The notes under the pieces: generated by a model
Seen by the model: the letters and a program-made list of their open reading frames with translations, nothing else
What the model was told of the DNA's origin: nothing
The model's database searches: none
Shown here: piece after piece, positions 5,790 to 44,550 of the stretch
Position numbering within the stretch: position 1 is the stretch's first letter
Layout of the letters: each line of letters starts with the position of its first letter
From: Alteromonas sp. LMIT006
Lineage (GTDB): Bacteria; Pseudomonadota; Gammaproteobacteria; Enterobacterales; Alteromonadaceae
DNA: 64,000 nt
Direction: 5' to 3'
NCBI RefSeq assembly: GCF_024300645.1
Contig: NZ_CP101291.1
Location: 1,302,001 to 1,366,000, forward strand
Translations under genes and position numbers: made by a program

Positions 5790-5856
5790 TTGATTTACAA
5801 TTTAACAATCAATATTAAATACAAATAACAATTGAAAGACCATAGGAAGAAACATT

Positions 5857-6195
5857 ATGTCATTATTTATAGCAGACGCTCACGCTCAAACCGCCGGTGC
5901 TCCAGCAGGAGGAAGTGGTATTGAATTATTAATTATGTTGGCTGTGTTCGGCTTGATTTTTTACTTTTTATTGTACCGCCCGCAAGCTAAGCGTGTAAAA
6001 GAGCACAAAAATCTTGTTGCGTCTTTGGCAAAGGGCGATGAAGTGATTACTGGTGGTGGTTTAATGGGTAAAATCACCAAAGTAACAGATGAAAAAGATT
6101 TCATCGAAATTGCGTTAAACGACAATAATAATGTCTTGGTACAAAAGAACGCCGTCACAGCCGTTTTGCCAAAAGGCACGATGAAGTCGCTATAA
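5857..6195 (+). CDS. yajC: Sec translocon accessory protein YajC
   Basis: A 112-aa single-pass inner-membrane protein associated with SecDF. It has a short N-terminus (FIADAHAQTAGAPAGG), one membrane helix at about residues 22-42 and then the family hallmark YRPQAKRVKEHKNL followed by a small cytoplasmic domain with GDEVITGGGLMGKI. The gene sits between tgt and secD as in other gammaproteobacteria and has AGGAAG upstream of its ATG. A terminator-like hairpin follows it. Confidence 0.96.
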   Translation: MSLFIADAHAQTAGAPAGGSGIELLIMLAVFGLIFYFLLYRPQAKRVKEHKNLVASLAKGDEVITGGGLMGKITKVTDEKDFIEIALNDNNNVLVQKNAVTAVLPKGTMKSL

Positions 6196-6207
6196 CACAA
6201 GCGCAAA

Positions 6208-6237
6208 TGGGCACTAACAAGTGCCCATTATTGTTTT
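6208..6237 (+). terminator. Terminator-like hairpin between yajC and secD
   Basis: TGGGCACT, loop AACA, AGTGCCCA, then TTATTGTTTT. The 8-bp perfect stem with a T-rich tail may stop or attenuate transcription before secD, so secD expression could be set below that of yajC. Confidence 0.7.
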
Positions 6238-6265
6238 ACCCCTTGCCAAATTTTAAGGACTGGTC

Positions 6266-8110: not shown

Positions 8111-8119
8111 GAGAATAAC

Positions 8120-9061
8120 ATGCAATTATTAAAAATAAACTCCACAATTAAGTTTATGAAATTGCGCATACCTGCGATGGTTTTGTCTAGTTTATTGATT
8201 TTGGGGTCACTTACCTCTTTGGCGGTAAACCAACTTAATTGGGGCTTAGATTTTACTGGTGGTACGCTCATAGAAGTGGGTTACCCTAAAGCGGCTAAGC
8301 TTGATGAAATTCGAGCGCAATTGGATGAAGCTGGCTTTTCCGATGCAATCGTACAAAACTTTGGTAGTTCACAAGATGTCTTAATCCGAATTGCTCCACG
8401 CGATGGGGTAAAAGCGGCTCAGATAGGTGACCAAATTATGGCGTCACTGCGGGCAGATGGCACAGATGTGGACATGCGTCGAATTGAATTCGTAGGTCCT
8501 CAAGTGGGAGAAGAGTTGACGGAACAAGGTGGTTTAGCCATGTTGACAGCGTTGATTTGTATCTTGTTGTACGTCATGATGCGCTTTGAATGGCGTTTTG
8601 CGCTGGGTTCTGTCAGCGCGCTTGCGCATGACGTAATCATCACGCTAGGTTTGTTTTCGGTGTTACAACTCGAGTTTGATCTGACCATATTGGCTGCAAT
8701 ATTAGCGGTCATAGGCTATTCACTTAACGACACGATTGTTGTATCAGACCGTATCCGTGAAAACTTTCGCAAAATTCGTAAAGAAGAACCAGAAGGTATT
8801 ATCAATATCTCTCTGACCCAGACACTGAATCGAACCATTATTACATCTGTAACAACGATATTAGTTTTGTTAGCGCTATTTTTTAAAGGTGGTGCATTGA
8901 TACATGGCTTCTCAACGGCGTTGTTATTTGGCGTCGTAATTGGAACTTACTCTTCAATTTATATCTCGAGTTCAGTTGCGCTGTTATTAGGTATTTCAAA
9001 AGAAGACTTGATACCTGAACAGGTTGAGAAAGAGGGCGAAGACCTAGACCCGTTATTGTAA
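8120..9061 (+). CDS. secF: Protein translocase subunit SecF
   Basis: A 313-aa partner of SecD. The N-terminal helix is followed by the motif GLDFTGGTLIEVGYP, a periplasmic domain, and five membrane helices containing VIGYSLNDTIVVSDRIRENF and TQTLNRTIITSVTT. AGGAG precedes the ATG. The gene ends at a clear bidirectional terminator shared with the convergent suhB. Confidence 0.97.
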   Translation: MQLLKINSTIKFMKLRIPAMVLSSLLILGSLTSLAVNQLNWGLDFTGGTLIEVGYPKAAKLDEIRAQLDEAGFSDAIVQNFGSSQDVLIRIAPRDGVKAAQIGDQIMASLRADGTDVDMRRIEFVGPQVGEELTEQGGLAMLTALICILLYVMMRFEWRFALGSVSALAHDVIITLGLFSVLQLEFDLTILAAILAVIGYSLNDTIVVSDRIRENFRKIRKEEPEGIINISLTQTLNRTIITSVTTILVLLALFFKGGALIHGFSTALLFGVVIGTYSSIYISSSVALLLGISKEDLIPEQVEKEGEDLDPLL

Positions 9062-9146: not shown

Positions 9147-9926
9147 TTAAGCTTTGTTCAAATATTTTAGTAACTGTTGGGTGACTTTTGGATTGCCACA
9201 CACGACATCACCTGATGCCAATATGTTTTCTCCACCTTGGAAATCAGTGACCACACCACCTGATTCACGAATCAGAAGCATACCCGCGGCGATGTCCCAT
9301 GGTTTTAGCTTGGCTTCAAAATACCCATCGTATTTGCCCGCGGCTGTGTAGGCCATATCAAGTGCTGCTGAACCCGAACGACGAATATCTCCTGATTGAA
9401 TTAAGATGGGTGTAAATTTTGACATGTAATCGGCAATTCGGGCTTTATCGCGAAACGGAAAAGCTGTCGCAATAATCGCTGAAGATAACTCACGACGTTT
9501 GCCACAACGAATGCGAAAGCCGTTTAACTGAGCGCCTTGTCCTTTGGTGGCGGTAAACAAATCACCGCGAATTGGGTCAAAGACGACAGCAATTTCAAGT
9601 TTGCCTTTTATTTTTAAAGCGATAGAAACAGCAAAATGTGGGATCCCTTGGATGAAGTTGGTCGTACCATCGAGTGGGTCAATGATCCATTGATAATCTG
9701 GGTTATCAAGTGTCTCACCGGATTCTTCACCGAGAAAACTATGGTCTGGGTAGGACTGTTGAATCTTACTGATTATGGCCGCTTCTGCTTCGCGGTCAAC
9801 TTTAGTGACAAAATCATTTGCCCCTTTCATATCAATATTCAAATCATCGCGGTTTTCAAAGCCACGGGTAATAATGTTGCCTGCCGTGCGCGCGGCACGA
9901 ATGGCGATGTTAAGCATTGGATGCAT
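9147..9926 (-). CDS. suhB: Inositol-1-monophosphatase family protein SuhB
   Basis: A 259-aa Mg-dependent phosphatase; in enterobacteria SuhB also joins the rRNA transcription antitermination complex. Metal-binding motifs are visible: FLGEESGE, the signature WIIDPLDGTTNF and the C-terminal KPWDIAAGMLLIRESGG. I took the ATG giving MHPMLNIAIRAAR, which matches the E. coli start and has GAGA upstream; a GTG directly before it is also in frame. The gene is divergent from trmJ, the usual gammaproteobacterial arrangement. Confidence 0.95.
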   Translation of the reverse strand: MHPMLNIAIRAARTAGNIITRGFENRDDLNIDMKGANDFVTKVDREAEAAIISKIQQSYPDHSFLGEESGETLDNPDYQWIIDPLDGTTNFIQGIPHFAVSIALKIKGKLEIAVVFDPIRGDLFTATKGQGAQLNGFRIRCGKRRELSSAIIATAFPFRDKARIADYMSKFTPILIQSGDIRRSGSAALDMAYTAAGKYDGYFEAKLKPWDIAAGMLLIRESGGVVTDFQGGENILASGDVVCGNPKVTQQLLKYLNKA

Positions 9927-10094
9927 CACGGTCTCGCTTATCAGTAAAATTCAATTGTCAAAGAACTGCATTGGTGTAGGTTCGCCAACGCATTGTCATT
10001 ATACGCATCAGAATGAACAGCGCAAAGATAATTTTTGTCTGAGGCATGCTTATGCTAGACTTTGCACCTATTTTTGTGATGACCTTATTTCGAC

Positions 10095-10802
10095 ATGCTT
10101 GAAAACATTAAGATTGTATTAGTGAATACCTCTCACACCGGCAACATAGGTTCAACGGCTCGGGCAATGAAAACTATGGGGTTAAGTCAATTGGTGTTGG
10201 TCGACCCGATTTCAGCACCAGATGGCAAATCCAGTGCGCTTGCCGCAGGCGCTGGAGATGTACTGGCGCAAGCTAAGACGGTTTCGAAGTTAGAAGAAGC
10301 GATTGCAGACTGTTCTTTAGTGGTTGGTACCTCAGCGCGTTCACGGACATTACCTTGGCCCATGCTTGAACCAAGAGAGTGTGGTGTTCGTATGGTAAAA
10401 GAGTCATTATCAGGGCCGGTGGCGCTCGTGTTTGGTCGTGAAAACAACGGCCTGACCAACGAAGAATTACAACAATGTCATTATCATGTTTGCATCCCTG
10501 CCAACCCTGAATATTCATCTTTAAATTTGGCCGCTGCAGTCCAAACCTTATGCTACGAAATTCGCATGGGCTATCTCAAGCAAAACGAGTATCCTGATGT
10601 CGAACAAGAATATCCTCTAGCTGAAGATTTGGAGCGGTTTTATGCCCATTTAGAAAGCACGCTTAAGGATACCGGGTTTGTGGTAGAGAATCATCCGGGA
10701 CAAGTGATGGTAAAATTACGACGCCTCTTTAATAGAGCTCGCCCAGAGCGCCACGAATTAAATATCTTACGTGGCATGTTGAGCTCAATTGATAAAAAGT
10801 AA
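10095..10802 (+). CDS. trmJ: tRNA (cytidine/uridine-2'-O-)-methyltransferase TrmJ
   Basis: A 235-aa SPOUT-family enzyme that methylates the ribose of position 32 in the anticodon loop of several tRNAs. It has the N-terminal [20 protein letters not shown] and the SAM-binding knot motifs [16 protein letters not shown] and [17 protein letters not shown]. cysE follows after 14 bp and is probably in the same transcript. In E. coli trmJ likewise sits directly upstream of the isc genes. Confidence 0.96.
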
Positions 10803-10816
10803 ACAAAGAGACTGAT

Positions 10817-11620
10817 ATGTTTCGTTCTATCAGAGAAGATATTAAAAGTGTATACGCCAGAGATCCTGCAGCGCGAAACGCGTGGGAAATTATAACTAAT
10901 TATCCTGGTTTGCATGCTATTTGGTTGCATCGCTTAAACCACAAATTATGGGGCTGGGGCTGGTATTGGCTAGCCAGAACATTGTCTAATGTAGGGCGGT
11001 TTATAACCGGTGTGGAAATCCACCCCGGAGCAACGTTAGGTCGACGCGTTTTCATTGACCATGGTATGGGGGTTGTTATAGGTGAAACGGCCAATATAGG
11101 TAATGACGTTACTCTATATCACGGTGTGACATTGGGTGGAACTAGTTGGAAAGCGGGCAAACGGCATCCTACCCTTGAAGATAATGTTGTCGTCGGCGCA
11201 GGAGCAAAAGTACTCGGTCCAATTACTATGGGGCGAGGTGCTAAGATTGGCAGTAATTCCGTGGTCGTGAAAGACGTTCCCGCCGATGCGACAGTGGTTG
11301 GTATTCCTGGGCGCATTATTATGGCCAAGCCAACCATAGATGAGTCAGGTGAACGAGCTAAAATTGCCAAAAAATACGGCTTTGATGCTTATGCAGTTTC
11401 CGATGAAAACCCCGATCCAGTTGCTAATGCGATAGGTTTATTGTTAGAGCATGTACATCAAATGGACAATAAAGTAGTAGAAATGTGCCATGCCATTCAA
11501 GAAATAGGGGGGGATGTGTGCACTCAAGATTTGCCCAAAGTCGATTTGCAAGACTTTGTTGACTCAGGCATTGAGCCAACCACTGCAAAAAGTCCCGATG
11601 ATTTTGACCCGCATATTTAG
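10817..11620 (+). CDS. cysE: Serine O-acetyltransferase (short, Isc-linked CysE type)
   Basis: A 267-aa left-handed beta-helix acetyltransferase that makes O-acetylserine, the direct precursor of cysteine. Hexapeptide repeats run from about residue 70 to 170 ([59 protein letters not shown]). Unlike the main E. coli CysE it lacks the long helical N-terminus and has an extra C-terminal domain of about 90 residues. This matches the CysE copies found next to isc operons in Azotobacter and Pseudomonas. Its place upstream of iscR suggests it supplies cysteine for IscS. Confidence 0.93.
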
Positions 11621-33936: not shown

Positions 33937-34014
33937 TGAATCAATGTCCTTCGTTGCGTGCGTCAAAAAATTGGGAGCATTTTAGCACAACTCCGGCAGG
34001 GCAAAAGGACTAAA

Positions 34015-34698
34015 TTAGTCTCGTTGTACATCTCGTACATAACAGATGTTATTGACGATTAAAAAATGCCAATCGCAGCCAAATAATCTGACTTTATAGG
34101 TTCTGTCAGGCTGATTTTGATAGGCTGGACGGGGATCAGATTGTAGGATCAGAGTCACTTGTTCGAGTTGTTGTGCGGTGATGCCAATTTGCAATGCTTT
34201 GCTATGACACTCAACCATCACCCGTAACGGTTCTGGTGCGTCCGGTGCGACGCCAGCAACCGCATCAGCGATACTGTCGGCATAAGGAATGTACGGTTTG
34301 ATATCATACAGTGGTGTTTCATTCACGACATCTGCACCACTGATATTGAGTGTGATGCTATTTTGATCATGCTTGACTGAATGCAGCTGGACAACCGACA
34401 TGCCTAACTGATTGGGTCGAAAAGGACTTCTAGATGCAAATACACCGAGTTTTTGATTGCCTCCTAATCGCGGTGGTCTGATCAAGGGTTTAAAATCAGT
34501 TTGTTGTACTTGGTGAAAGCCAAAAATTAACCAGATATGAGAGTAGTCGACAAGTCCTCGAAAGGCGTTTATATCCTTGTAATCCGAGTGAATAATAATC
34601 TGAGACTGTACTTGCGAAAGCAATGAAGCTTGACGCGGAATGCCAAATTTTTCATCAAAGGGCGTTAAAATGGTCCCAATCGGATGGATCTCAGCCAT
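34015..34698 (-). CDS. trmO: tRNA (N6-threonylcarbamoyladenosine37-N6)-methyltransferase TrmO (TsaA family)
   Basis: A 227-aa enzyme that methylates t6A37 of threonine tRNA. Family motifs are HPIGTILTPFDEKFGIPRQ, GLVDYSHIWLIFGFH and the core FASRSPFRPNQLGMSVV, followed by GADVVNETPLYDIKPYIPY. The ATG at 34698 overlaps the end of the DUF1415 gene by 8 nt (ATGGCTGA), so the three genes folD, DUF1415 and trmO form one tightly packed unit. Confidence 0.93.
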   Translation of the reverse strand: MAEIHPIGTILTPFDEKFGIPRQASLLSQVQSQIIIHSDYKDINAFRGLVDYSHIWLIFGFHQVQQTDFKPLIRPPRLGGNQKLGVFASRSPFRPNQLGMSVVQLHSVKHDQNSITLNISGADVVNETPLYDIKPYIPYADSIADAVAGVAPDAPEPLRVMVECHSKALQIGITAQQLEQVTLILQSDPRPAYQNQPDRTYKVRLFGCDWHFLIVNNICYVRDVQRD

Positions 34699-35230
34699 GC
34701 ACTGCACGCTTTAATTGTTGCACAAAATAGTCTTGACCAAGCGTTTGCGCAGTGGCGATATTTTTATCCGGGATCCCTTCTGGATCATCCACCATATCAA
34801 GCACTTTGCTCAAACTGTTTTCCCGCAAAATATGTAGCATCGCAAAGGGAGAACGATTGGTATAATGACTAGCGTCTCCTTCATCGACACCGGCAAAGAT
34901 ATATTGTGGATGAAAACTTGCTATTTGGTAGGTACCAGAGTAGCCCAGATCATCGAGCACTCTCTCAGCAAAGTATAAGTAGTCGAGATAATCATCAAAC
35001 GTGGTTTCTTGCTTGATAATGATTAGGGTCGTATCTGTAGCTGGGTGTGTGTCAAGAAAGGTAAATTCAGCTTCCAATTGGTCAAACAGCTCATCGGGTT
35101 TGAGGATGTTTGATTCAACATACCGGATTTGGTCGTTGCAAAAAGGCTTCTTCGCAAAAGGGCAAAAGTTATGCCCGATTACGATATGTTCTAACCAATA
35201 TTTTGTTGCCTCAACAGCAGATTGAGTCAT
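34691..35230 (-). CDS. DUF1415 family protein of unknown function
   Basis: A 179-aa soluble protein. It opens [20 protein letters not shown] and contains [20 protein letters not shown] and the C-terminal [12 protein letters not shown], features of the DUF1415 family. No catalytic activity is established for it. It overlaps folD by 4 nt (ATGA) at its start and trmO by 8 nt at its end, so its translation is coupled to a one-carbon enzyme and a tRNA methylase. The conserved Cys in NFCPF could be redox or metal related, but that is a guess. Confidence 0.85.
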
Positions 35231-36087
35231 TTTTGTGTTTGAGCCTTTACGTATGCTTCAAGTGTATTTTCGATAAGACTTGCTACCGTCATTGGACCGA
35301 CGCCTCCAGGAACAGGTGTGATCCAACCCGCGCGTTCTTGTGCTTTAGCAAACTCGACATCGCCTACTAGAGAACCATCGTCTAGCCGATTGATACCGAC
35401 ATCAATGACAATGGCATTGTCTTTGACCCATTCGCCTGGAATAAAATTGGGTTTGCCAACGGCTACGACCAACAGGTCAGCTCGCTCAACATGGCTTTTA
35501 AGATCCTTGGTAAATTTGTGACAGGTTGTCACGGTACAACCAGCAAGAAGTAACTCTAAAGCCATCGGACGACCAACAATATTTGAAGCGCCAACGATGA
35601 CTGCATCAAGACCTTTGATATCGCGTTTGGTCGACTCAATCATGGTCATAATACCTTTAGGCGTACACGGTCTAATTGCAGGGATACGTTGTGCTAAGCG
35701 ACCAATATTGTAAGGGTGGAAACCATCTACGTCTTTGTATGGATTGATGCGCTCAAGGATTTCTTCAGCGTTTAGACCAGCCGGTAAAGGTAACTGGACC
35801 AAAATGCCATCGATCTCTTCGGCGTTGTTTAATTCATCTATGAGTGACAACAGTTCTTCTTGAGAGGTGGTTGATGGCAAATCGTAGCTTTTTGATACAA
35901 AGCCGACTTCATCACAGGCTTTGCGTTTGTTGTTTACATAAACCTGAGATGCCGGGTCTGAACCGACCAAAACGACGGCTAAACCAGGTGCGCGCTTATT
36001 GGCAGCAACCGCACGAGAAACATAAGAGGCGACGTCCTGTCGAACATTTTGAGCGATGACTTTGCCATCGATGAGTTGGGCTTGCAT
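35227..36087 (-). CDS. folD: Methylenetetrahydrofolate dehydrogenase/cyclohydrolase FolD
   Basis: A 286-aa bifunctional enzyme interconverting 5,10-methylene- and 10-formyl-tetrahydrofolate. Signatures: [20 protein letters not shown] with the catalytic Lys, [23 protein letters not shown], the NADP site [18 protein letters not shown] and the C-terminal [13 protein letters not shown]. It begins the overlapping folD-DUF1415-trmO unit and lies next to a tRNA cluster, the usual place for folD in related genomes. Confidence 0.97.
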
Positions 36088-36156
36088 GAATGAACCTATG
36101 CGACGTATAAATATGTGTATATTGTTTCATATCGTGGATAAATTGCCAAAAATAAA

Positions 36157-36184
36157 TTGACCAATTCAGACATTCTGTTAATAT
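36157..36184 (+). promoter_or_regulatory. tRNA promoter P1 (Pro-Arg)
   Basis: TTGACC, 16 bp, TAATAT, followed at once by GCGCAACCC. The GC-rich stretch after the -10 is the discriminator expected for a stringently controlled stable-RNA promoter. The tRNA-Pro gene begins 14 bp after the -10. Confidence 0.82.
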
Positions 36185-36197
36185 GCGCAACCCTAGT

Positions 36198-36274
36198 CGG
36201 TGAGTGGCGCAGCTTGGTAGCGCACTTGTTTTGGGTACAAGGGGTCGCAGGTTCAAATCCTGTCTCACCGACCA
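36198..36274 (+). tRNA. tRNA-Pro (anticodon TGG)
   Basis: 77 nt with encoded CCA. Acceptor stem CGGTGAG / CTCACCG, anticodon stem CTTGT / ACAAG around loop TTTGGGT, T-arm GCAGGTTCAAATCCTGT. It is identical over its full length to the tRNA-Pro at 44773-44849. Confidence 0.97.
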
Positions 36275-36315
36275 TTTCTTCTACAATGATTTCCTGTTAT
36301 ATTTCAATTTCCAGT

Positions 36316-36392
36316 GCGCCCTTAGCTCAGCTGGATAGAGCAGTAGCCTTCTAAGCTATTGGTCGCAGGTTCGAATCCTGCAGGGCGCGCCA
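36316..36392 (+). tRNA. tRNA-Arg (anticodon TCT)
   Basis: 77 nt with encoded CCA. Acceptor stem GCGCCCT / AGGGCGC, anticodon loop CTTCTAA, T-arm GCAGGTTCGAATCCTGC. It follows tRNA-Pro by 41 bp and a terminator comes directly after it. Its last 19 nt plus one flanking base are repeated 159 bp downstream. Confidence 0.97.
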
Positions 36393-36552
36393 TCAAATAC
36401 CAAAACCCGCTTTTGCGGGTTTTGTTGTATTTGGTGCCCTGCAGGGTGAGAACCTAGGTTCGACCAAAACGTCAGGAACGTTTTGGCAGTGCCAAAGGCA
36501 GGGCATAGCCCCGAGCACAGGATGTGTGAGCTAATCCTGCAGGGCGCGCCAT
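36374..36552 (+). repeat. Direct repeat of the tRNA-Arg 3' end enclosing a structured tRNA-like segment
   Basis: AATCCTGCAGGGCGCGCCAT occurs at 36374-36393 (end of tRNA-Arg) and again, identical over 20 bp, at 36533-36552. The segment between contains a terminator, a 9-bp hairpin CCAAAACGT / ACGTTTTGG (36464-36486), and GCCCTGCAGG (36436-36445), which is complementary to CCTGCAGGGC inside the second copy. That pairing would mimic an acceptor stem over about 110 nt. It resembles the tRNA-like repeats known downstream of some gammaproteobacterial tRNA genes; whether it is transcribed or processed is unknown. Confidence 0.8.
36402..36426 (+). terminator. Terminator after tRNA-Arg
   Basis: AAAACCCGC, loop TTTT, GCGGGTTTT, then GTTG. 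It sits 9 bp after the tRNA CCA end and before the tRNA-like segment. Confidence 0.88.
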
Positions 36553-36634
36553 ATACAAAAGAGACCTGCCTTGTGCAATTCCTTTCCCAGTCTGTCTAAA
36601 TCTTGTATCCACTCATCACTCTTAAATCACTGAT

Positions 36635-36673
36635 AAAAAACTGACTGCGCAAAAAATAGCGGATCAGTTTTTT
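36635..36673 (+). terminator. Long hairpin upstream of the export locus
   Basis: AAAAAACTGA / TCAGTTTTTT with a 19-nt interior containing CGC/GCG. The A-run and T-run make it look like a bidirectional terminator insulating the export genes from tRNA transcription. Confidence 0.65.
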
Positions 36674-36713
36674 CAAGATATTGATTTTAAATGATTTTTT
36701 AAAATTTATTTTT

Positions 36714-36741
36714 TTGCAAAAGTAATAAGGCGTTCTATAGT
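36714..36741 (+). promoter_or_regulatory. Putative promoter of the peptide export locus
   Basis: TTGCAA, 16 bp, TATAGT, 47 bp before the HlyD-family start. It is the best sigma70-like pair after the hairpin at 36635-36673. Confidence 0.55.
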
Positions 36742-36788
36742 TAACATTAAGAATAAGTAATCAAAAGTGAAATGAGTTTAACCCAACC

Positions 36789-38045
36789 ATGACCATTGAA
36801 GATAAAGCACTCTTTAGAATTAACGCGATTAAAGGGCAATCCTCACGCTTAGATGGTGAGGTGTTGATTGCGAGACCTGTGTCGAGTTATGTGCTGTTTT
36901 CTTCGCTGGTGATTATCATTCTTGTAGCCATTGTGTTTTTGGTTAACGCTCAGTTCCATCGTAAAGAAGCCGTCATGGGGTATCTTTCCCCAAGTGAAGG
37001 AACGTCAAAAATACTGGCGCCATCATCAGGCGTCGTTTCACAACTCTTAGTAAACAATGGTGAGTTTGTTCAAGCGGGTGAGCCTTTGGCTTTGGTCACT
37101 ACCGCTCAGCAAACGTCAGACGGTCTTTCGGTAAATGAGGCGCTTGTCAACGCCACTCGCGAGCAGCTAGATTTGATGACTAACCGAATGAGTCATGCTG
37201 AAATAGCCTTTGAGCAAGAGCGTGATGTATTACAAGAGGCAATGAAGCATTCTGATAGAACTCGCGCTTATACCGCCACTCAAATTCAACTAGCTAATGA
37301 GCGATTAGTAATTCAACAGGCTCGTCTAGATAGACTAGCAGGGTTACAACTGCAAGGTGCGGTGACTCAAAACGATGTCGATACACAATCAGAGCAAGTC
37401 ATTGTACTGAATCAACAAATAGCAGAACTTAAAGTTATCGAGCAGCAAGCCAGTAATCAACTGGCTGAACTTGAGGCACGATTAGCCAGCCTACCAATTG
37501 AGCATCAACAAAGTATTGCACTGCTAGAAAGTGAGAAGTCACGCCTATCTCAGCAGTTATTATCTCATCAAGCTAGTGGCGAATGGTTAATAACTGCGCC
37601 TACAACAGGTAAAGTCACTAATATAGGGTTATCAGTCGGTGATAGTGTGAGACAGCAGCAATATGTAATGACTGTCTTGCCTGAGAGTGATTCGCTTTGT
37701 GCCATTTTACTCGTCCCTTCACGTGCTTATGGTTTCGTTACCGAGGGACAAAACACCAAAATCAGATTTGATGCTTTTCCGTATCAACGCTTTGGGTTGT
37801 TTGATGGGGAAGTTATAAAAACGAGTGATTACATTGTGATGCCAGGTGAAATTGATATGCCGGTCGCTATCAATAAGCCAGTGTACAAAGTGGAAGTCGC
37901 TATGGCGTCACAAAGTATCAGCGCCTATGGTCAATCGGTTCCGTTACAACCGGGTATGACGATAAGCGCCGATATCGTGCTTGAAGAACGCAGTCTTCTA
38001 AGCTGGTTATTTGAACCGATTATCAGCCTGAAAGGGCGTGTTTAA
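36789..38045 (+). CDS. HlyD/CvaA-family periplasmic adaptor of a peptide exporter
   Basis: A 418-aa membrane-fusion protein. A cytoplasmic N-terminus is followed by one membrane helix (about 33-54), a lipoyl-like half motif APSSGVVSQLLVNNGEFVQAG, and a long coiled-coil hairpin (about 110-255). The second half motif is ITAPTTGKVTNIGLSVGDSV, followed by a beta domain. This layout fits the CvaA type that links a C39-peptidase ABC exporter to TolC. The matching exporter lies at 39054. No TolC gene is here, so a genome-wide one would be used. The start has no strong ribosome binding site; a 6-codon mini-ORF (36772) overlaps it as ATGA. Confidence 0.92.
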   Translation: MTIEDKALFRINAIKGQSSRLDGEVLIARPVSSYVLFSSLVIIILVAIVFLVNAQFHRKEAVMGYLSPSEGTSKILAPSSGVVSQLLVNNGEFVQAGEPLALVTTAQQTSDGLSVNEALVNATREQLDLMTNRMSHAEIAFEQERDVLQEAMKHSDRTRAYTATQIQLANERLVIQQARLDRLAGLQLQGAVTQNDVDTQSEQVIVLNQQIAELKVIEQQASNQLAELEARLASLPIEHQQSIALLESEKSRLSQQLLSHQASGEWLITAPTTGKVTNIGLSVGDSVRQQQYVMTVLPESDSLCAILLVPSRAYGFVTEGQNTKIRFDAFPYQRFGLFDGEVIKTSDYIVMPGEIDMPVAINKPVYKVEVAMASQSISAYGQSVPLQPGMTISADIVLEERSLLSWLFEPIISLKGRV

Positions 38046-38085
38046 AACTTAAAATCACACTGTAAACGTCTCAAGGAGAGATAAT

Positions 38086-38259
38086 ATGAAAGAACTAACT
38101 TTTGAGGAAGTCAAAGAAGTAAATGGTGGTAACCCTTATGTTGTTGGTGCTGCTATCGGTTGGGCTGTGAGTAAAGTATTAGATTCTGCAGCGGAATCTT
38201 TAAGTGAGGTTGACTGGGGGAGCTCTATGGGTGACGAGGATACAAATTTAGCACCCTAA
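38086..38259 (+). CDS. Double-glycine leader peptide (candidate class II microcin/bacteriocin or signalling peptide)
   Basis: A 57-aa peptide with AAGGAG seven bases before the ATG. The first 15 residues, MKELTFEEVKEVNGG, form a classic double-glycine leader of the colicin V type (hydrophobic positions at 4, 6, 9 and 12, then GG). Cleavage would leave a 42-residue core. It begins NPYVVGAAIGWAVSKVL, a hydrophobic Gly/Ala-rich helix, and ends in an acidic tail with two Trp in all and no Cys. It lies between the adaptor and the exporter, whose C39 domain is expected to cut after the GG. The net-negative core is unusual for a pore-forming bacteriocin, so a signalling role is also possible. Confidence 0.88.
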   Translation: MKELTFEEVKEVNGGNPYVVGAAIGWAVSKVLDSAAESLSEVDWGSSMGDEDTNLAP

Positions 38260-38266
38260 TACCTCC

Positions 38267-38295
38267 TAAGAGGGGGGCTTTGCCTCCTCTTATTT
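38267..38295 (+). terminator. GC-rich hairpin after the peptide gene
   Basis: TAAGAGG plus G-run pairs with the C-rich arm ending CTCTTA around a TTT loop; the tail TTTC is weak. It probably limits read-through from the highly expressed peptide gene into the CPBP and ABC genes, or stabilises the peptide mRNA. Confidence 0.6.
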
Positions 38296-38326
38296 CACAA
38301 ATGCTATATGCTCTTGGAAGATCGTT

Positions 38327-39010
38327 ATGATAAACAATAAAGTTAAAAAAGCAGTTGTTTTAAAATTAAAGATGACAGCTCTATTCCTTTTGTTGCAACT
38401 TATATCAGTTGTTTTGTCAGAATTTTTAATATCGCCTTTTATCACTGGGGATGTATACAAGGATATAGAATATTATGTTGCTATTATAATTATGTTACCC
38501 ATTGTTTTATTTGCAAGTAAGAGGGATGAATTTAATCTTCCAAATGAATTTTTTAATTTTAATATTGATTTTAGTTTTTTTTGGAAGGTTATTGCAGTTG
38601 TATTTTTTTACTTTTTGATCTTTTATTTCCTTGCAGAGTTTCTGAATATCTCAGGTGAAAATGATATATTTGAAATAATAAATGTGCTAAATGAAGGGAG
38701 TATATATGTTAAAGTGTTACTTGTTTTTTCGATATGTTTAGCTGCGCCAATAATAGAGGAGATTTTTTTTAGGGGGTGGCTAATAAGTAAACTCATGATG
38801 TTAGATGTTGATAAAAACTATATCATTATAACCACTTCAACTCTATTCATGTTTTCTCATATTCAGTATCAAAATATCTTTAGTTATATTTATCTTTTTA
38901 TAATGGGTTTCGGCCTTGGTTGTATAAGGATTAAGAAAAATAATATTTCATATTGCATTTTAGCTCACTCATGTTTAAATTTTTTGGCCGTGTTTTCATG
39001 GATTTATTAA
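38327..39010 (+). CDS. CPBP-family intramembrane protease, candidate immunity/processing protein
   Basis: A 227-aa membrane protein with about six to seven helices. The CPBP (Abi/CAAX protease) motifs are intact: EEIFFRGW (EExxxR) near residue 143, FMFSHIQ near 174 and HSCLN near 213. Family members in bacteriocin loci often confer self-immunity; others cleave membrane proteins. The gene is markedly AT-rich, about 30% GC in the lines I counted, while the exporter directly after it is above 50% in places, so it probably has a separate origin. It lies between the peptide gene and its exporter. Confidence 0.88.
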   Translation: MINNKVKKAVVLKLKMTALFLLLQLISVVLSEFLISPFITGDVYKDIEYYVAIIIMLPIVLFASKRDEFNLPNEFFNFNIDFSFFWKVIAVVFFYFLIFYFLAEFLNISGENDIFEIINVLNEGSIYVKVLLVFSICLAAPIIEEIFFRGWLISKLMMLDVDKNYIIITTSTLFMFSHIQYQNIFSYIYLFIMGFGLGCIRIKKNNISYCILAHSCLNFLAVFSWIY

Positions 39011-39053
39011 TTTATCAAGGTCAGGAGCTAGGTAAATCAATAGGTAAAGTAAA

Positions 39054-41114
39054 GTGATCTACCAATCAGAAGCCGCTGAATGCGGCCTAGCCTCTATCGC
39101 CATGGTGGCAAATCACTATGGCCATAAGATTGATTTATCGACATTGCGCAGTCGCTATAACATCTCGTTTAAAGGGGCGAACCTGCAACAGTTAATGCAG
39201 TTGGCCGAGCAGTTAAACATGGTGGGTCGGGCACTTCGTTTAGAGTTGGATGAGCTTAGGGACCTAAAGACGCCCTGTATCTTGCATTGGGATATGAATC
39301 ATTTTGTGGTACTTAAGAAAGTCTCGCGCAAAAGTATTACTATCCTCGACCCTGCGATGGGTGAGCGTGTCATTCCAATGAAAGAAGTCGATACGTCGTT
39401 TACTGGTATCGCATTAGAACTAACGCCCACGTCTGAATTTAAGAAAAAAGACGAACGCGCCAAACTTAGCATTACATCATTTTGGACGCGCATTGATGGC
39501 TTAACATCGTCTTTAGTCAAGCTGTTCGTTCTATCCTTGATATTGCAATTCTTGATGCTTGCTGCGCCGTATTATACGCAGTTGGTCGTGGATAATGTGT
39601 TAGTCAGTTTTGATAAACCCTTGCTGGTCGTATTGGCACTCGGGTTTGGCTTAGTGATGCTGGTATCCGTCATTACAGATGCGTTTCGTAGCTGGGTGGT
39701 GTTGCATTTGTCTTCCTCGATGAGCGTGCAAATGGCGACTAATCTGATGCGGCATTTGGTGCATTTGCCGATGGAATACTTCGATAAACGTCATATGGGC
39801 GATGTGGTATCGCGTTTTGGTTCACTGAACAGTATTCGGGATTTGTTTACCAACAAAATCGTGGAAGGCGTCATTGATGGATTAATGTCCATTGTGGTGT
39901 TGGTCATGATGTTTTTGTACGATGTTACGCTAGCATTGGTGGTGTTGGGTGTTGTTATACTGTATGCCATCATACGCATTATTCTCTATCGCCCCGTTCA
40001 TCAACTCACCGAATCGAGCATTGTCGCAGGTGCCGCTGAACAATCCAACTTTATGGAAACTGTGCGAGGCATTCAAAGCATCAAACTGTTTGGCCAACAA
40101 ACTCAGCGTTTAAACTTGTGGCAAAACAAATACACCGAAGCCGTTAATCAAGGCTATCGCTTAGGCAAATGGCATATTTCGTATCAAACGATTAATGGGC
40201 TGTTATTCGGGGTAGAAAATATCCTGGTGGTCTATCTTGCTGCGCTCGCTGTGATGGAAGGGGGGATGTCAGTAGGGATGCTATTTGCGTTCATGGCTTA
40301 CAAAAATCAGTTTACCAATCGCATGGCGGGGTTAATCAGCAACCTTATCGACATTAAGATGACGTCATTGCATTTGGATAGATTAGCGGATATTGCCTTA
40401 ACCTATAAAGAGAAGGAAGGGGCGGAGCAGCCATTTCGTGAAATCACCGGTGAATTAACACTAAACAATATTAACTTTCGCTATGCCGACAACGAACCTT
40501 TACTGTTTGATGAACTTAGCTTATCTATTAAAGCGGGCGATAACATTGCCATCATCGGCGCATCAGGGACAGGCAAATCTACGTTAATGAAGCTGATGCT
40601 GGGATTATTAACACCGCATTCTGGCAAGATTGAAGCGGACGGGGTGAACATCCAACATCTTGGTTTACGTCACTATCGACAGCAAGTGGCCTCAGTCATG
40701 CAGGACGACCAGTTAATGTCGGGGACGTTGGCTGAAAATATCAGTTTTTTTGACCCACAAATGAACATGGAGAAGGTGATGGAAGCTGCCATCTTAGCTG
40801 GTATTCATGATGATATCGCCCAAATGAACATGGGGTATAACTCATTGGTGGGCGATATGGGCAATGCGTTATCTGGCGGTCAGTCGCAAAGGTTATTATT
40901 GGCAAGGGCGCTATACAGAGAACCTAAGATGTTATTTTTGGATGAGGCTACTAGCCACTTGGATATCGAGCTTGAACAGCATGTGAATCAAGCCATTCAG
41001 CAACTTTCTATGACTCGCATTACCATTGCACATCGGCCTGAGACGATTCGAAGTGCTGATACTATTTATGAGCTTAGAGAGGGTAAAATGCATAATATCA
41101 CCGCAACCTATTAA
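39054..41114 (+). CDS. Peptidase-containing ABC transporter (C39 domain, bacteriocin exporter)
   Basis: A 686-aa exporter that cuts double-glycine leaders and exports the core peptide. The C39 protease domain has catalytic Cys10 (QSEAAECGLASIAMV), His83 (HWDMNHFVVL) and Asp99 (ILDP). A six-helix membrane domain follows (about 160-420). The ATPase has Walker A GASGTGKST near 503, signature LSGGQSQ near 606 and Walker B MLFLDEATSHLD near 628. It starts at a GTG only nine codons before Cys10, with an in-frame stop three codons upstream of it, so the usual 15-20 residue N-terminal extension is absent. Its sequence is CvaB-like (GALKTPCILHW-type region, here DLKTPCILHWD). Confidence 0.95.
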   Translation: MIYQSEAAECGLASIAMVANHYGHKIDLSTLRSRYNISFKGANLQQLMQLAEQLNMVGRALRLELDELRDLKTPCILHWDMNHFVVLKKVSRKSITILDPAMGERVIPMKEVDTSFTGIALELTPTSEFKKKDERAKLSITSFWTRIDGLTSSLVKLFVLSLILQFLMLAAPYYTQLVVDNVLVSFDKPLLVVLALGFGLVMLVSVITDAFRSWVVLHLSSSMSVQMATNLMRHLVHLPMEYFDKRHMGDVVSRFGSLNSIRDLFTNKIVEGVIDGLMSIVVLVMMFLYDVTLALVVLGVVILYAIIRIILYRPVHQLTESSIVAGAAEQSNFMETVRGIQSIKLFGQQTQRLNLWQNKYTEAVNQGYRLGKWHISYQTINGLLFGVENILVVYLAALAVMEGGMSVGMLFAFMAYKNQFTNRMAGLISNLIDIKMTSLHLDRLADIALTYKEKEGAEQPFREITGELTLNNINFRYADNEPLLFDELSLSIKAGDNIAIIGASGTGKSTLMKLMLGLLTPHSGKIEADGVNIQHLGLRHYRQQVASVMQDDQLMSGTLAENISFFDPQMNMEKVMEAAILAGIHDDIAQMNMGYNSLVGDMGNALSGGQSQRLLLARALYREPKMLFLDEATSHLDIELEQHVNQAIQQLSMTRITIAHRPETIRSADTIYELREGKMHNITATY

Positions 41115-41145
41115 TCTCTGAATGGAGAATAGAGGGACAGCGGTC

Positions 41146-42789
41146 TTAAATGGTCAGTGGAATCATAATACTAATTTGCGTACCTGAGCGAGTATCAATC
41201 TGAAATGTTCCCTCTAATGCTAATATACGTTGTTGCATGCCTTCCAGGCCGAAACCAGATGTATTATGTGCCGGATCGAAGCCAACGCCATCATCTTTTA
41301 TGATCAATGACAAAGCCGCAGGTGTTGTTTTGAGCTCAATGGTAAAATGGGATGCATTAGCGTATTTTATGGTATTGTTGACGGCCTCTTGCACAACTCG
41401 ATATACGGCAATACTGATATTATCTGAAAGAGTGATGAAGTTTGGCTCATATATGAATGAGTAATTCACTTTAAATAAAGCTAATTTATCTTTGAAATAG
41501 TCTCCTTTTAGCGTTTCATACAAGCCATCTCGGCTTAACATCTGTGGTTTTAGTTTGTGGACAATTTCATGCAATGAACGATGGATATGCCCGCTATATG
41601 TATTTAGGCTCTGAAAGGTATCGGCCGTGTCTGGATTGGAGCAGTCGGATTCAATAACGCTCAAAGCGGAATCAATGGTTTTGATATTTTCGCGCAGCGA
41701 TATATTGATTTCTTTCGCTAATTGTTGTCTTTCGTACTCTTGCGCGTTGACCAATAATTGATTTACGTTACGGATGTTGTGATTCACTTCACGTAAGTGG
41801 GCATTGGTGAGGCTCAAATTAGATTGAGCATTGAGTAATTTGGACTGTGCCAAGTCCAACTCGTACAACATCGCACTGATGAGTATTCCAATCAAGTTAA
41901 ACAAGCATAGGAACCAAACTGTTTCATACAGCGTAATGCCGAGCGATATTCGAGAGTATTGTTCAAAGTGATTCGTTTGAGTGGCTAGTTCATTAAGCAA
42001 ATACGCTTTCTGGGTCAATGGTAATGCCGGGTCATATTGAATAATGACATGTGCGATAAACCCCAATAATACCAAATTACTTACAGTAACAAACCCTGCA
42101 CATCCCGCCCAGCGGTGTTTATGACAAAACCAAAGCCCCGGTAAAATACTAAAAATAGCTAAGTATTTGATGTAATCGGCGGATAAAGCCACGATCCCAA
42201 TCAGCACGATAGTGAAAACAACCAAGGCAAGAATTAGGCGGGGGAAGTTGACAGGCAGTTGTTCATGCTCGTCTGAAATAAAATAATGACTGAGGTTAAA
42301 TAGCCAAATCAATATCAGGCTGAATGCAACATTGCCCAGTATGGCAAGTTTAATTTGGGTCGTACTGTATTGTTCGAGTGTGCCTAAGCCGTAATTCAGT
42401 ACAAGAAAATGCACAGTGATAAAAAAAACTATGCTCAGTATCTGTAAAGAAATAGTGTGGAGTTCAAAATTATTTTGTACCGGAAGTAATCGACTCAATG
42501 GCAAAATTATCAGCAGCATAAAGCCAAAGCTAATGATACTGTTATATAAATCGAATAGCCCCATAGTAGACATGAGCCAAAGCATAAAAATGGTACTTAA
42601 CAATTTTAAAAGCAGGCTGGCATATCCAGAAAATAGTAGCCAAATGGCTGTTGGTATTACCACCAATTGAGTACTCAAGCCTTGAGTCAAATTGATGATC
42701 AGCGAATCAAAAAATCCGCACAATAAGACCAGAAAAAAATGTAAAACAGTCACCGTCGACAATAATTTATTAAAGCGGAAGCCAAACAT
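41146..42789 (-). CDS. Degenerate HPK7/NarL-type sensor kinase lacking the phosphoacceptor histidine
   Basis: A 547-aa protein with an N-terminal membrane domain of about eight to ten helices, a coiled coil (about 320-350) and a C-terminal histidine-kinase ATPase. The ATPase boxes are intact: N box VVQEAVNNTIKYAN, G1 DDGVGFDP, G2 GFGLEGM. The dimerisation box reads QLAKEINISLRE where the active family has ELHDxxGQ: position 362 is Asn, not His. It overlaps the 3' end of the upstream kinase gene by 20 nt. It may bind ATP and act only in a heterodimer, or be a signalling pseudokinase. The start at 42789 has GGAG upstream; the frame extends to 42834. Confidence 0.88.
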   Translation of the reverse strand: MFGFRFNKLLSTVTVLHFFLVLLCGFFDSLIINLTQGLSTQLVVIPTAIWLLFSGYASLLLKLLSTIFMLWLMSTMGLFDLYNSIISFGFMLLIILPLSRLLPVQNNFELHTISLQILSIVFFITVHFLVLNYGLGTLEQYSTTQIKLAILGNVAFSLILIWLFNLSHYFISDEHEQLPVNFPRLILALVVFTIVLIGIVALSADYIKYLAIFSILPGLWFCHKHRWAGCAGFVTVSNLVLLGFIAHVIIQYDPALPLTQKAYLLNELATQTNHFEQYSRISLGITLYETVWFLCLFNLIGILISAMLYELDLAQSKLLNAQSNLSLTNAHLREVNHNIRNVNQLLVNAQEYERQQLAKEINISLRENIKTIDSALSVIESDCSNPDTADTFQSLNTYSGHIHRSLHEIVHKLKPQMLSRDGLYETLKGDYFKDKLALFKVNYSFIYEPNFITLSDNISIAVYRVVQEAVNNTIKYANASHFTIELKTTPAALSLIIKDDGVGFDPAHNTSGFGLEGMQQRILALEGTFQIDTRSGTQISIMIPLTI

Positions 42790-44413
42790 CGATATTCGCT
42801 CCGTTGGTATTGTGGATGTGCATCTTGCCACCAAGTGCTATGACATGGTTGTAAATCATAAACAGTCCATCGCCGTAATTACCGGCTAGGGTATTATCAT
42901 TAAAGCCGATGCCGTTGTCACAAAAAGACAAATGTACTTGCTTGTCTTCGAGTTCAATACTAATAGAGCAAGAGTCGGCTTTACTGTGTTCAACTGTGTT
43001 TTTGATACACTCCTGGACCATGCGTACAATCGTGATTTTGTTGGTATCAGTTAGATCAATTAGGTCCTCTGTGACATAGGCATGGTATTCGATGAAGTTG
43101 TTGCCAAGATATTCATTGAAGTTTTCTTTACTCAAAGCGATGTTGAGGGGCGCATCATCAATATTTTTTGGCCGAAGCCAATACATTAACCGATAAGCAT
43201 TGTTATACAGATTCCCGCATTCTATCTTAATGTCATTCAGCAACTCAGGGTGTAGTCTTGCAATATCGAATTTTTTTTCCAATACGGAAATTAACGCTCT
43301 CAAACCAATAATGCTTTGGCCGACATCATCATGTAGTTCTTGTGAAAGACGTTTTTTTTCCGCTTCTCGGATATTTACGGCCTGTTTCGATAAGTTTTGT
43401 AAATCGTTTTTGGAAATTAATAATTCAGCGTTTTGTGCCTCCAAAGTAGTTTGTCTTAGAACCAAAGATGAAGTGGCCCGGCTGTGTTCCAGTTGCAGAG
43501 CGGCTGTCACCAACCCCGTTGCAAAATAAGCGGCAATAAAGGTTTGAAAATCAACTAACAATTGGCTGTCAGCGTTATGTAAAAATATTAATAGAACCGT
43601 GTTAATCCATAATGCGCAACTCAAGCTTCCAAACCAAGTTAAGCGAATGGCAAAGTAGATGATTGGAAGGAATAAGAATAACTTCAAGAGTTCTCGAGTA
43701 AATGCATTAGTATAAAATGCAAATACCATGGCGAGTGTGAGAAGAAAGATGTTTTGCAATAATTCGGCTTTTGAAAACTCAGGAATTTTATACCGAAATT
43801 GTAATACCCACATGACGATAAGGAACAATGTAATTGCGAAGAGTAAACCTGGATAAGCGGCTATATTATGCAGGATAAACATATCCAAAACGTCTTCTGC
43901 TTTTACTTTGTCATAGACAGAAGTATCTGACAGAACAAAGTAGCCTACGCTAGTGAACCGGGTCAGCATGCCAAGCAATACTATCAAAGATATTGATTTC
44001 AGAGTGAATAAATGACGGTTAATGTGATGTTCTCGAGCGTAATAGATGAATGGCAATGTATGAATGGTCATAAACACGCTTTGTACAAAATGTCTTAACA
44101 TGTCGTAATAAATAGACTCCTGTACTTGCATAGTTAGACCACTGGCAAAACAGATAGCCAGTATCGCACTGACCCAAAACCGGTAGGGTAGGAAGATAAA
44201 AATGATAAATTGGAAGCCTAGAGGAAAATACCAAATAACAAAACTAGGAATGACAACATAGTTAAATGAAAAATTAAAAAGAGAAAACTGTCCTATACTT
44301 ACTAGGACAAAAATCAAGAACTGTGCAACGCATTGGTGGACAAAGGATGCTTCGATGTTAAATGTGCGGTGGACCAGAAAAGCCGCGATACTGCTGATGC
44401 TTTTTGATTGCAT
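42770..44413 (-). CDS. HPK7/NarL-type sensor histidine kinase with MASE1-like membrane domain
   Basis: A 547-aa kinase. About eight membrane helices resemble the MASE1 sensor type (VVIPSFVIWYFPLGFQFIIF), followed by a coiled coil. The dimerisation box is RLSQELHDDVGQSIIGLRAL with His361, and the ATPase has MVQECIKNTVEHSKA, FCDNGIGFND and GDGLFMIYNHV. Length, layout and phosphoacceptor position match the next gene, so the two are tandem paralogues. No response regulator lies nearby. I chose the ATG at 44413 because it gives equal lengths for both paralogues and leaves room for a promoter. An ATG at 44482 with AAGG upstream is possible; the frame continues to 44539. Confidence 0.88.
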   Translation of the reverse strand: MQSKSISSIAAFLVHRTFNIEASFVHQCVAQFLIFVLVSIGQFSLFNFSFNYVVIPSFVIWYFPLGFQFIIFIFLPYRFWVSAILAICFASGLTMQVQESIYYDMLRHFVQSVFMTIHTLPFIYYAREHHINRHLFTLKSISLIVLLGMLTRFTSVGYFVLSDTSVYDKVKAEDVLDMFILHNIAAYPGLLFAITLFLIVMWVLQFRYKIPEFSKAELLQNIFLLTLAMVFAFYTNAFTRELLKLFLFLPIIYFAIRLTWFGSLSCALWINTVLLIFLHNADSQLLVDFQTFIAAYFATGLVTAALQLEHSRATSSLVLRQTTLEAQNAELLISKNDLQNLSKQAVNIREAEKKRLSQELHDDVGQSIIGLRALISVLEKKFDIARLHPELLNDIKIECGNLYNNAYRLMYWLRPKNIDDAPLNIALSKENFNEYLGNNFIEYHAYVTEDLIDLTDTNKITIVRMVQECIKNTVEHSKADSCSISIELEDKQVHLSFCDNGIGFNDNTLAGNYGDGLFMIYNHVIALGGKMHIHNTNGANIDVWLPL

Positions 44414-44435
44414 GAAACTGTGCGTTGATTTTATT

Positions 44436-44464
44436 ATTGTGCGATTTTTGCATAATCCAGACAA
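44436..44464 (-). promoter_or_regulatory. Possible promoter of the kinase pair
   Basis: On the minus strand TTGTCT, 17 bp, CACAAT, ending 23 bp before the 44413 start. It is back to back with tRNA promoter P2. Confidence 0.4.
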
Positions 44465-44489
44465 AAAACCAACAAAATACATTTTTACC

Positions 44490-44518
44490 TTGACACAGAT
44501 GGGGCAAGTCTTTAATAT
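44490..44518 (+). promoter_or_regulatory. tRNA promoter P2 (His-Leu-Pro)
   Basis: TTGACA, 17 bp, TAATAT, then GCGCTCCGC. The -35 is consensus and the discriminator GC-rich. TTAATATGCGC is shared exactly with promoter P1 at 36178-36188. Confidence 0.88.
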
Positions 44519-44550
44519 GCGCTCCGCTTTGTACGGCACAACAAATCAAT

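What the first reader, a model, noticed from the sequence alone, without database searches (positions are those of the whole stretch)
36789..41114. Candidate new microcin-like peptide with dedicated C39 exporter and adaptor
The 57-aa gene at 38086 has a textbook double-glycine leader, a strong ribosome binding site and sits between a CvaA-like adaptor and a CvaB-like exporter with intact Cys-His-Asp. I do not recognise the core from any named bacteriocin. It combines a Gly/Ala-rich hydrophobic half with an acidic tail (seven acidic residues against one Lys after the GG) and has no cysteine, so it is neither a lanthipeptide nor a disulfide microcin. An acidic, exported, unmodified peptide in a marine-type bacterium could be an antibacterial or an autoinducer.
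Basis: partly seen in the sequence, partly recalled or inferred. Interest (0 to 1): 0.75.

Follow-up and report, generated by a model that had tools for sequence, protein, structure and literature searches.

The report
Swappable bacteriocin cassette behind adaptor gene
The small secreted peptide is most likely an antibacterial peptide with its own protection gene, and relatives of this marine bacterium swap and stockpile such peptide cassettes next to one export pump, using the end of a pump gene as the landing pad.

Summary
Window 38086-38259 encodes a 57-aa peptide with a 15-aa double-glycine leader and an acidic 42-aa core, between a HlyD-type adaptor (36789) and the genome's only detected C39 exporter (39054). 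The core matches no Pfam, NCBIfam or PDB entry; it is intact in 3 of 9 other genus genomes searched.

The main result is the setting. Adaptor and exporter flank a slot. In 39 cassette peptides from related loci, a near-constant leader precedes cores of 24 families. Of 46 loci read (not a random sample), 7 carry 12 partial HlyD copies; all 12 keep the HlyD 3' end and all 12 are followed by another double-glycine peptide. The same cassette is in the slot in one genome and displaced in another, twice. The HlyD tail is conserved at silent sites far beyond its body (third-codon identity 0.80 against 0.42, 171 of 171 pairs); two control groups show an excess of only 0.05-0.06. Against Opacimonas viscosa the window's own cassette shows sharp identity steps on both sides.

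Best reading: a microcin-type bacteriocin in a recombination-exchanged slot, working like Rhs orphan modules but anchored in a separate secretion gene. Killing, the CPBP role and active switching are inferred.

The parts
36789..38045 (+). HlyD-type periplasmic adaptor (membrane fusion protein), 418 aa
   Evidence: PF13437 3.6e-15; TIGR01843 6.4e-39, below its curated cut-off
37917..38130 (+). Left exchange anchor: last ~129 nt of the adaptor gene, spacer, ribosome binding site and leader codons; this stretch is what is repeated in front of displaced cassettes in relatives
   Evidence: silent-site excess; identity step against O. viscosa at about 37929
38086..38259 (+). 57-aa double-glycine-leader peptide (leader 38086-38130, core 38131-38256)
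38327..39010 (+). CPBP/Rce1-like intramembrane protease homologue, 227 aa, EExxxR, FxxxH and HxxxN motifs present; likely immunity
   Evidence: (PF02517 4.1e-18)
39054..41114 (+). C39 peptidase-containing ABC exporter, 686 aa; its start codon is flush with the cassette end
39054..39300 (+). Likely right exchange arm: 5' end of the exporter gene, cassette-like identity to O. viscosa that drops after about 39300
   Evidence: displaced C39 5' fragments in two relatives

Best explanation
Window 36789-41114 is a microcin-like (class II, peptidase-processed, type I-exported) bacteriocin locus. The 57-aa precursor is exported through the C39 exporter and HlyD adaptor, with the leader cut after Gly15. 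The Gly/Ala-rich hydrophobic half (GxxxG) probably acts at the membrane, and the acidic C-terminal DWGxSMxDxDTNLAP segment probably sets the target. The CPBP protein most likely protects the producer. The peptide and CPBP genes form a cassette in an exchangeable slot: the 3' end of the adaptor gene plus the leader codons form the left homology arm, and the start of the exporter gene forms the right one. Homologous recombination with incoming or tandem copies replaces or inserts cassettes. Old cassettes survive beside the locus, marked by a broken-off adaptor tail. Shown by sequence: genes, motifs, exchange footprints, displaced cassettes and cassettes shared between genomes. Inferred: cleavage, killing, target, immunity, and that exchange continues today.
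For: Genes and motifs. Displaced cassettes: in 7 of 46 loci, 12 partial HlyD copies, all reaching the HlyD C-terminus (18 rows, of which 2 opposite-strand 20-22% hits and the 2 rows of L076's decayed whole copy were set aside, and two frame-broken tails of two rows each were counted once); all 12 are followed by a double-glycine peptide. Same cassette in slot and displaced: orphan L077:7381-8863 = slot of L079:4019-5504 (95%); orphan L077:9811-10969 = slot of L084:5290-6436 (81%), the match ending 13 nt before the exporter start. G103 and G369 are single-contig assemblies, so these arrays are not contig-joining artefacts. Silent sites: third-codon identity tail 0.80, body 0.42, 171 of 171 pairs; tail above exporter in 135 of 136 pairs. 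Controls with other adaptor loci: excess 0.05 and 0.06. Window itself against O. viscosa: HlyD identity 0.35-0.72 rising to 0.95-0.98 at about 37929; 0.80-0.98 over 38100-39299, then 0.68-0.87; third-codon identity peptide 0.93, CPBP 0.85, exporter 0.58-0.61. Transfer between genera with its partner gene: O. viscosa peptide 1 and a peptide of G150 (genus g17), 81% core identity; neighbouring membrane proteins 42%.
Against: No activity, cleavage or expression data. The window genome itself holds one cassette and no displaced tail, so the array is seen only in relatives. The two O. viscosa steps come from two places of its array: the tail from the full HlyD beside cassette 1, the peptide-CPBP-exporter stretch from cassette 5, which has no tail directly in front. 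Against G003 and G004 there is no step at the tail. The right arm is weaker: the first 30 exporter codons have third-codon identity 0.61, but another exporter window reaches 0.62. CPBP proteins are not always immunity proteins: SilX of S. anginosus is not (passages of PMC9298176). The related cassette of G109 has a CPBP only 34% identical over 89 aa.
Confidence: 0.65

Rival explanations
1. The peptide is a signalling autoinducer: exported by C39/HlyD and sensed by the histidine kinases encoded next door, with the CPBP protein helping to mature it.
For: Two histidine-kinase genes at 41146-42834 and 42770-44539 abut the exporter. A similar pair plus a LuxR-type regulator abuts a different C39/HlyD locus in O. 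viscosa. A CAAX protease was linked to signal-peptide maturation in S. anginosus (passages of PMC9298176).
Against: Cores at this slot are highly diverse (39 cores, 24 families), and several cassettes hold two peptides. No cognate receptor gene travels inside the cassettes listed. No LuxR-type regulator was seen next to the kinases in the window (one search lists trigger factor, ClpP and ClpX next).
Confidence: 0.15
2. The conserved adaptor tail is a DNA or RNA element (a site-specific recombination site or structured RNA) acted on by a recombinase, and cassettes move as in integrons rather than by ordinary homologous recombination.
For: Left edges of displaced tails cluster 125-141 nt before the adaptor stop in four genomes (G009, G261, G292, G369) and wobble positions are unusually constant.
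Against: Other left edges lie at 71, 112, 193, 228 and 509 nt, so the edge is not fixed. The consensus RNA fold has both-sided changes in only 2 of 32 pairs. No recombinase was looked for systematically.
Confidence: 0.15
3. The adaptor tail is conserved only because it docks onto the exporter; the displaced pieces are decaying duplications with no role in exchange.
For: The adaptor C-terminus is conserved at protein level in control loci too (tail aa 0.80 and 0.61 against body 0.70 and 0.37). Several displaced tails are frame-broken.
Against: Protein selection does not explain silent-site identity of 0.80; body windows with aa identity of at least 0.80 average 0.55 (individual windows reach 0.96), and control tails 0.50 and 0.39. 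It also does not explain identical cassettes in slot and displaced positions.
Confidence: 0.05

Closest known systems
Class II microcins / colicin V-type GG peptides with CvaA-CvaB-like export
   Same: 15-aa leader ending in GG, small unmodified-looking core, C39 exporter with Cys/His/Asp, HlyD-family adaptor, adjacent membrane protein (components as described in passages of PMC9746304)
   Different: Core has no database match; the immunity candidate is a CPBP protease of 227 aa, longer than the 51-216 aa range of confirmed immunity proteins given in PMC9746304; the peptide sits in an exchangeable slot with displaced cassettes in relatives; TolC, activity and receptor untested
Moraxella catarrhalis mcbABCI bacteriocin locus (passages of PMC2761928)
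   Same: HlyD-like adaptor, C39-type exporter, GG peptide and small immunity gene in one operon
   Different: Gene order A-B-C-I; no adaptor-tail cassette array was mentioned in the passages seen
Rhs orphan toxin modules (passages of PMC3967940) and V. cholerae T6SS displaced effector-immunity arrays (passages of PMC5361080)
   Same: Displaced toxin-immunity modules beside an expression site, carrying a fragment of the conserved upstream coding region as homology
   Different: There the anchor is part of the toxin/effector gene; here it is the 3' end of a separate secretion gene plus the leader codons, and displaced peptides usually keep RBS, start and leader
Pneumococcal blp bacteriocin-immunity region (passages of PMC4860687)
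   Same: Variable double-glycine bacteriocin and immunity genes served by one C39 exporter, diversified by recombination
   Different: Gram-positive, regulated by a peptide quorum system; no displaced exporter or adaptor ends as cassette markers in the passages seen
Lactobin A/cerein 7B family (TIGR03949)
   Same: Leader residues 2-27 resemble the model (E=0.002)
   Different: 17.9 bits against a cut-off of 21.5; match is leader plus start of core only

Membership tests
Class II microcin | Leader of about 15-18 aa ending GG or GA | tested here: met
   15-aa leader ending GG; range from passages of PMC10233263
Class II microcin | C39 peptidase-containing ABC exporter with Cys, His, Asp | tested here: met
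   (C10, H83, D99)
Class II microcin | HlyD-family adaptor nearby | tested here: met
Class II microcin | TolC outer-membrane channel in the genome | not tested
   no search made
Class II microcin | Cognate immunity gene beside the precursor | tested here: inconclusive
   CPBP gene present but 227 aa, and no protection test; other roles for such proteins exist
Class II microcin | Antibacterial activity of the mature core | not testable with these tools
   needs bench work
CPBP/Rce1-like intramembrane proteases (PF02517) | Pfam score over cut-off and EExxxR plus FxxxH motifs | tested here: met
   65.9 bits against 22.4; E144, F174...H178, H214
Lactobin A/cerein 7B bacteriocins (TIGR03949) | Score over the curated cut-off | tested here: not met
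   17.9 against 21.5 bits
Bacteriocin class IIc (PF10439) | Score over the curated cut-off | tested here: not met
   14.8 against 27.1 bits
Lanthipeptide | Cys in core and a lanthionine synthetase nearby | tested here: not met
   0 Cys in the core; no synthetase gene among the listed ORFs 34000-44500
Rhs/T6SS-type orphan-module system (as a way of working, not a homologue) | Displaced modules carrying a fragment of the conserved upstream coding sequence | tested here: met
   met in 7 of 46 loci of relatives; not in the window genome itself
Rhs/T6SS-type orphan-module system (as a way of working, not a homologue) | Recombination that activates a displaced module, shown in live cells | not testable with these tools
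   only footprints between genomes

The most novel reading that the evidence does not exclude
Alteromonadaceae run a true cassette-switching system for secreted bacteriocins: one expression slot between adaptor and exporter, a nearby archive of displaced cassettes, and a constant DNA anchor (adaptor 3' end, RBS and leader) that lets cells re-arm by recombination within a clone and import foreign cassettes. Displaced cassettes keep RBS, start and leader, so they may also be expressed at once as a growing arsenal. The clustering of left edges 125-141 nt before the adaptor stop leaves room for a preferred recombination point.
Probability: 0.3. Interest if true: 0.8.

Novelty: new variant of a known kind. 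Interest (0 to 1): 0.62.

Why it matters
Peptide bacteriocins of Gram-negative bacteria are known mostly one by one from enterobacteria. Here one marine family shows how a single export machine is re-armed: the constant ends of the secretion genes work as connectors and any peptide-immunity pair can be plugged in. This carries the displaced-module logic known from large contact-dependent toxins over to small secreted peptides, and gives a simple genomic search key (adaptor tail plus leader) that already yields 39 cassette peptides in 24 families, the window's peptide among them. It makes testable whether strains switch bacteriocins within a clone and whether retained old cassettes protect against siblings.

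Tried and rejected
Known bacteriocin family for the core: Pfam, NCBIfam and PDB sequence searches gave only sub-cut-off leader matches or nothing. Plasmid-borne relatives of the peptide: none in 72,556 records; adaptor relatives on plasmids are all under 60% identity. Wider spread of the core: 13 of 395 family genomes at E<=0.01 and 6 of 394 order genomes at E<=0.001, own included; beyond the genus only G109 showed the C-terminal motif, and the other rows cover mainly the leader end of the query.

RNA structure as the reason for silent conservation of the adaptor tail: 2 of 32 predicted pairs with both-sided changes, not supported. Fixed left edge of displaced tails (site-specific recombination): edges vary, left open as a rival. 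Displaced tails outside the family: order-wide tail search matched 155 of 394 genomes; in the capped list of matches only two frames were under 400 aa, G095 (same family, 43 aa, one stop) and G397 (another family, 283 aa), so no clear array outside the family was seen. Natural competence as the route: a ComEC-type domain is present in the window genome, but the same search also rings in E. coli among the controls, so it proves nothing. Promoter scan: 9 sites against 14.0 expected, uninformative. No structure prediction was run. Literature: ten searches listed no paper on an adaptor-tail bacteriocin cassette array; the library holds only openly licensed PMC papers, so this is weak evidence of novelty.

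Limits of the counts: the 46 loci were chosen for strong or repeated tail hits, so 7 of 46 is not a prevalence. The 39 peptides are mainly the first peptides after tails; second peptides of two-peptide cassettes were left out. The 24 families depend on the blastp thresholds, and the largest (10 members) is Gly/Ala-rich, where chance similarity is higher. G249's tail piece (L072) lies at a contig end and was not counted.
Full report
OBSERVATION. ORF 38086-38259 (+) encodes 57 aa with leader MKELTFEEVKEVNGG and a 42-aa core with 7 acidic residues, 1 Lys and no Cys. It lies between a HlyD-type adaptor (36789-38045) and a C39 peptidase ABC exporter (39054-41114). The exporter aligns with the solved peptidase-containing transporter 4ry2 (E=1.5e-99), and C10, H83 and D99 occupy the aligned Cys, His and Asp positions. 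The genome (one contig, 2.53 Mb) gave one C39 match and one match to the peptide, so peptide and exporter are very probably partners.

THE CORE. Pfam and NCBIfam give only sub-cut-off matches at the leader end (PF10439 14.8 of 27.1 bits; TIGR03949 17.9 of 21.5 bits), and no PDB chain matches at E<=10. In the genus, 3 of 9 other genomes carry it at 86-96% identity, in the same gene order. Among 395 family genomes 13 (own and genus included) reach E<=0.01; beyond the genus only G109 shares the C-terminus, LSSIDWGDSMDDPDTNLAP against LSEVDWGSSMGDEDTNLAP. G109's cassette also carries a CPBP gene, only 34% identical to the window's over 89 aa.

THE SLOT. In O. viscosa the same exporter is preceded by an array: a full adaptor, then four further double-glycine peptides, the last three each behind a separate copy of the adaptor 3' end, before the window-like peptide and CPBP gene. 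I searched the adaptor's last 51 residues in 395 family genomes (199 with a match), took stretches from the best and the repeated hits and read 46 loci in all. Besides full adaptors, 7 loci carry 12 partial copies. All 12 reach the adaptor C-terminus (one stops a residue short), none is an N-terminal or internal piece, and all 12 are followed by a double-glycine peptide. Set aside before this count: two opposite-strand hits at 20-22% identity and the two rows of a decayed whole copy in L076; two frame-broken tails of two rows each were counted once. Exporter fragments were seen in two loci (L076 residues 1-161, L079 residues 1-28), both with the N-terminus.

CASSETTES MOVE. In genus g17, G103 (L077) and G369 (L079) are single-contig assemblies. 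A cassette displaced downstream of the exporter in G103 (L077:7381-8863) matches the slot cassette of G369 (L079:4019-5504) at 95%, and a displaced copy in G369 itself at 98%. The slot cassette and exporter of G103 (4503-7724) match 5321-8556 of G369 at 93%, while the adaptor gene regions upstream match at only 77%. Another displaced cassette of G103 (9811-10969) matches the slot of G326 (L084:5290-6436) at 81%, ending 13 nt before the exporter start. O. viscosa peptide 1 and a G150 peptide (genus g17) share 81% of the core, and their neighbouring membrane proteins 42%. The 39 listed cassette peptides fall into 24 core families, while the leader hardly changes (MQELTFEQVEEVSGG or close in most; MKEL... 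in the window's genus).

SILENT SITES AND CONTROLS. In 19 cassette-type loci (171 pairs) third-codon identity is 0.42 in the adaptor body and 0.80 in its last 45 codons; the tail exceeds the body in 171 of 171 pairs. In a slightly smaller set it exceeds the exporter in 135 of 136 pairs. Controls: adaptors of C39 loci with another gene order (7 loci, 20 pairs, one near-identical pair dropped) 0.45 and 0.50, tail higher in 16 of 20; other HlyD-C39 loci (7 loci, 21 pairs) 0.34 and 0.39, tail higher in 19 of 21. Body windows of 45 aa with aa identity of at least 0.80 average 0.55, single windows reaching 0.96. A large silent excess is thus peculiar to cassette-type loci. No covarying RNA structure explains it (2 of 32 pairs).

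THE WINDOW'S OWN CASSETTE. Against O. viscosa, adaptor identity is 0.35-0.72 up to about 37929 and 0.95-0.98 after it. The stretch 38100-39299 (peptide, CPBP gene, first ~250 nt of the exporter) is 0.80-0.98, and the rest of the exporter compared is 0.68-0.87. Third-codon identities: body 0.35, tail 0.89, peptide 0.93, CPBP 0.85, exporter 0.61 and 0.58. So the cassette and the adaptor tail have a younger common history than the genes that flank them. Caveat: the two steps come from different places in O. viscosa's array. Against G003 and G004 no step is seen at the tail. The window genome holds a single copy of the tail.

RIGHT EDGE. In 25 loci the exporter's start is conserved while the 70 nt before it are unrelated, except among close relatives, so cassettes end flush with the exporter start. 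The first 30 exporter codons show third-codon identity 0.61, but another window reaches 0.62, so the right arm rests mainly on the O. viscosa comparison and the two displaced exporter heads.

MECHANISM. Most likely the precursor is cut after Gly15 and exported by C39/HlyD (and TolC, not checked), and kills relatives lacking the cassette. The hydrophobic GxxxG half suggests membrane action; the conserved acidic C-terminus may bind a receptor. CPBP proteins are widespread in bacteriocin loci, with immunity shown for some and other roles for others (passages of PMC9298176). Of the cassette proteins tested with Pfam, four others are also CPBP (L084, L077, L085, L120) and three small membrane proteins have no family. 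Exchange by homologous recombination between adaptor tails (left) and exporter starts (right) explains displaced tails, slot swaps and silent identity. Displaced left edges vary (71 to 509 nt before the adaptor stop) but cluster at 125-141 nt in four genomes, so a preferred point is not excluded.

COMPARISON. The parts are those of class II microcins (passages of PMC9746304 and PMC10233263) and resemble the Moraxella mcb locus (passages of PMC2761928) and Mcc17978 (abstract and one section of PMC10333792). The arrangement works like Rhs orphan modules (passages of PMC3967940) and displaced T6SS effector arrays (passages of PMC5361080), with recombining bacteriocin sets known from pneumococcal blp (passages of PMC4860687). 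What differs is that the anchor is the end of a separate secretion gene and that displaced peptides keep their own start and leader. Ten literature searches listed no such report; the library is partial.

VERDICT. Observation confirmed; interpretation partly supported; the locus is a new member of the microcin-type peptides placed in a new variant of a cassette-exchange system.

Noticed in passing
window 40600-42975: Near-perfect identity (0.97-1.00 in 60-nt steps) to MAG WKH.6 (G004) over the exporter's 3' end and the adjacent kinase genes, while the rest of the exporter and the adaptor are 0.77-1.00 and folD has third-codon identity 0.77: a recent recombination tract.
   Followed up: partly
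window 41146-44539 (-): Two histidine-kinase genes converge on the exporter; a similar pair plus a LuxR-type regulator sits beside a different C39/HlyD locus in O. viscosa (L038).
   Followed up: partly
window 38272-38288: Terminator-like hairpin between the peptide and CPBP genes (GC stem, T-containing tail); such hits were at chance level in the region, 5 found against 4.3 expected.
   Followed up: no
L108:2400-5483 (also seen near L105, L107, L114): C39 exporter, a Cys/Ser-rich GG precursor (repeated DxWSTMS.GC) and, in L108, a 928-aa RamC_N/kinase/LanC-like protein: a Gram-negative class III/IV lanthipeptide-like locus using a related adaptor.
   Followed up: partly
L010:2001-3707 (-), likewise L011: Thalassotalea: GG-leader peptide beside a radical SAM protein and, further on, a C39 exporter and adaptor with two more GG peptides; looks like a modified-peptide locus.
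   Followed up: partly
L007:3522-5908 and L072:149-2484: Cassettes of two genera pair an acidic GG peptide with an S9 prolyl-oligopeptidase-like enzyme (Pfam-tested in L007 only); perhaps peptide-destroying immunity or a processing enzyme.
   Followed up: no
folD neighbourhood in window, L006, L008, L034, L036, L039, L040: A C39/HlyD locus lies near folD in several genus genomes, but of two unrelated types, as if this were a hotspot for peptide-export loci.
   Followed up: no
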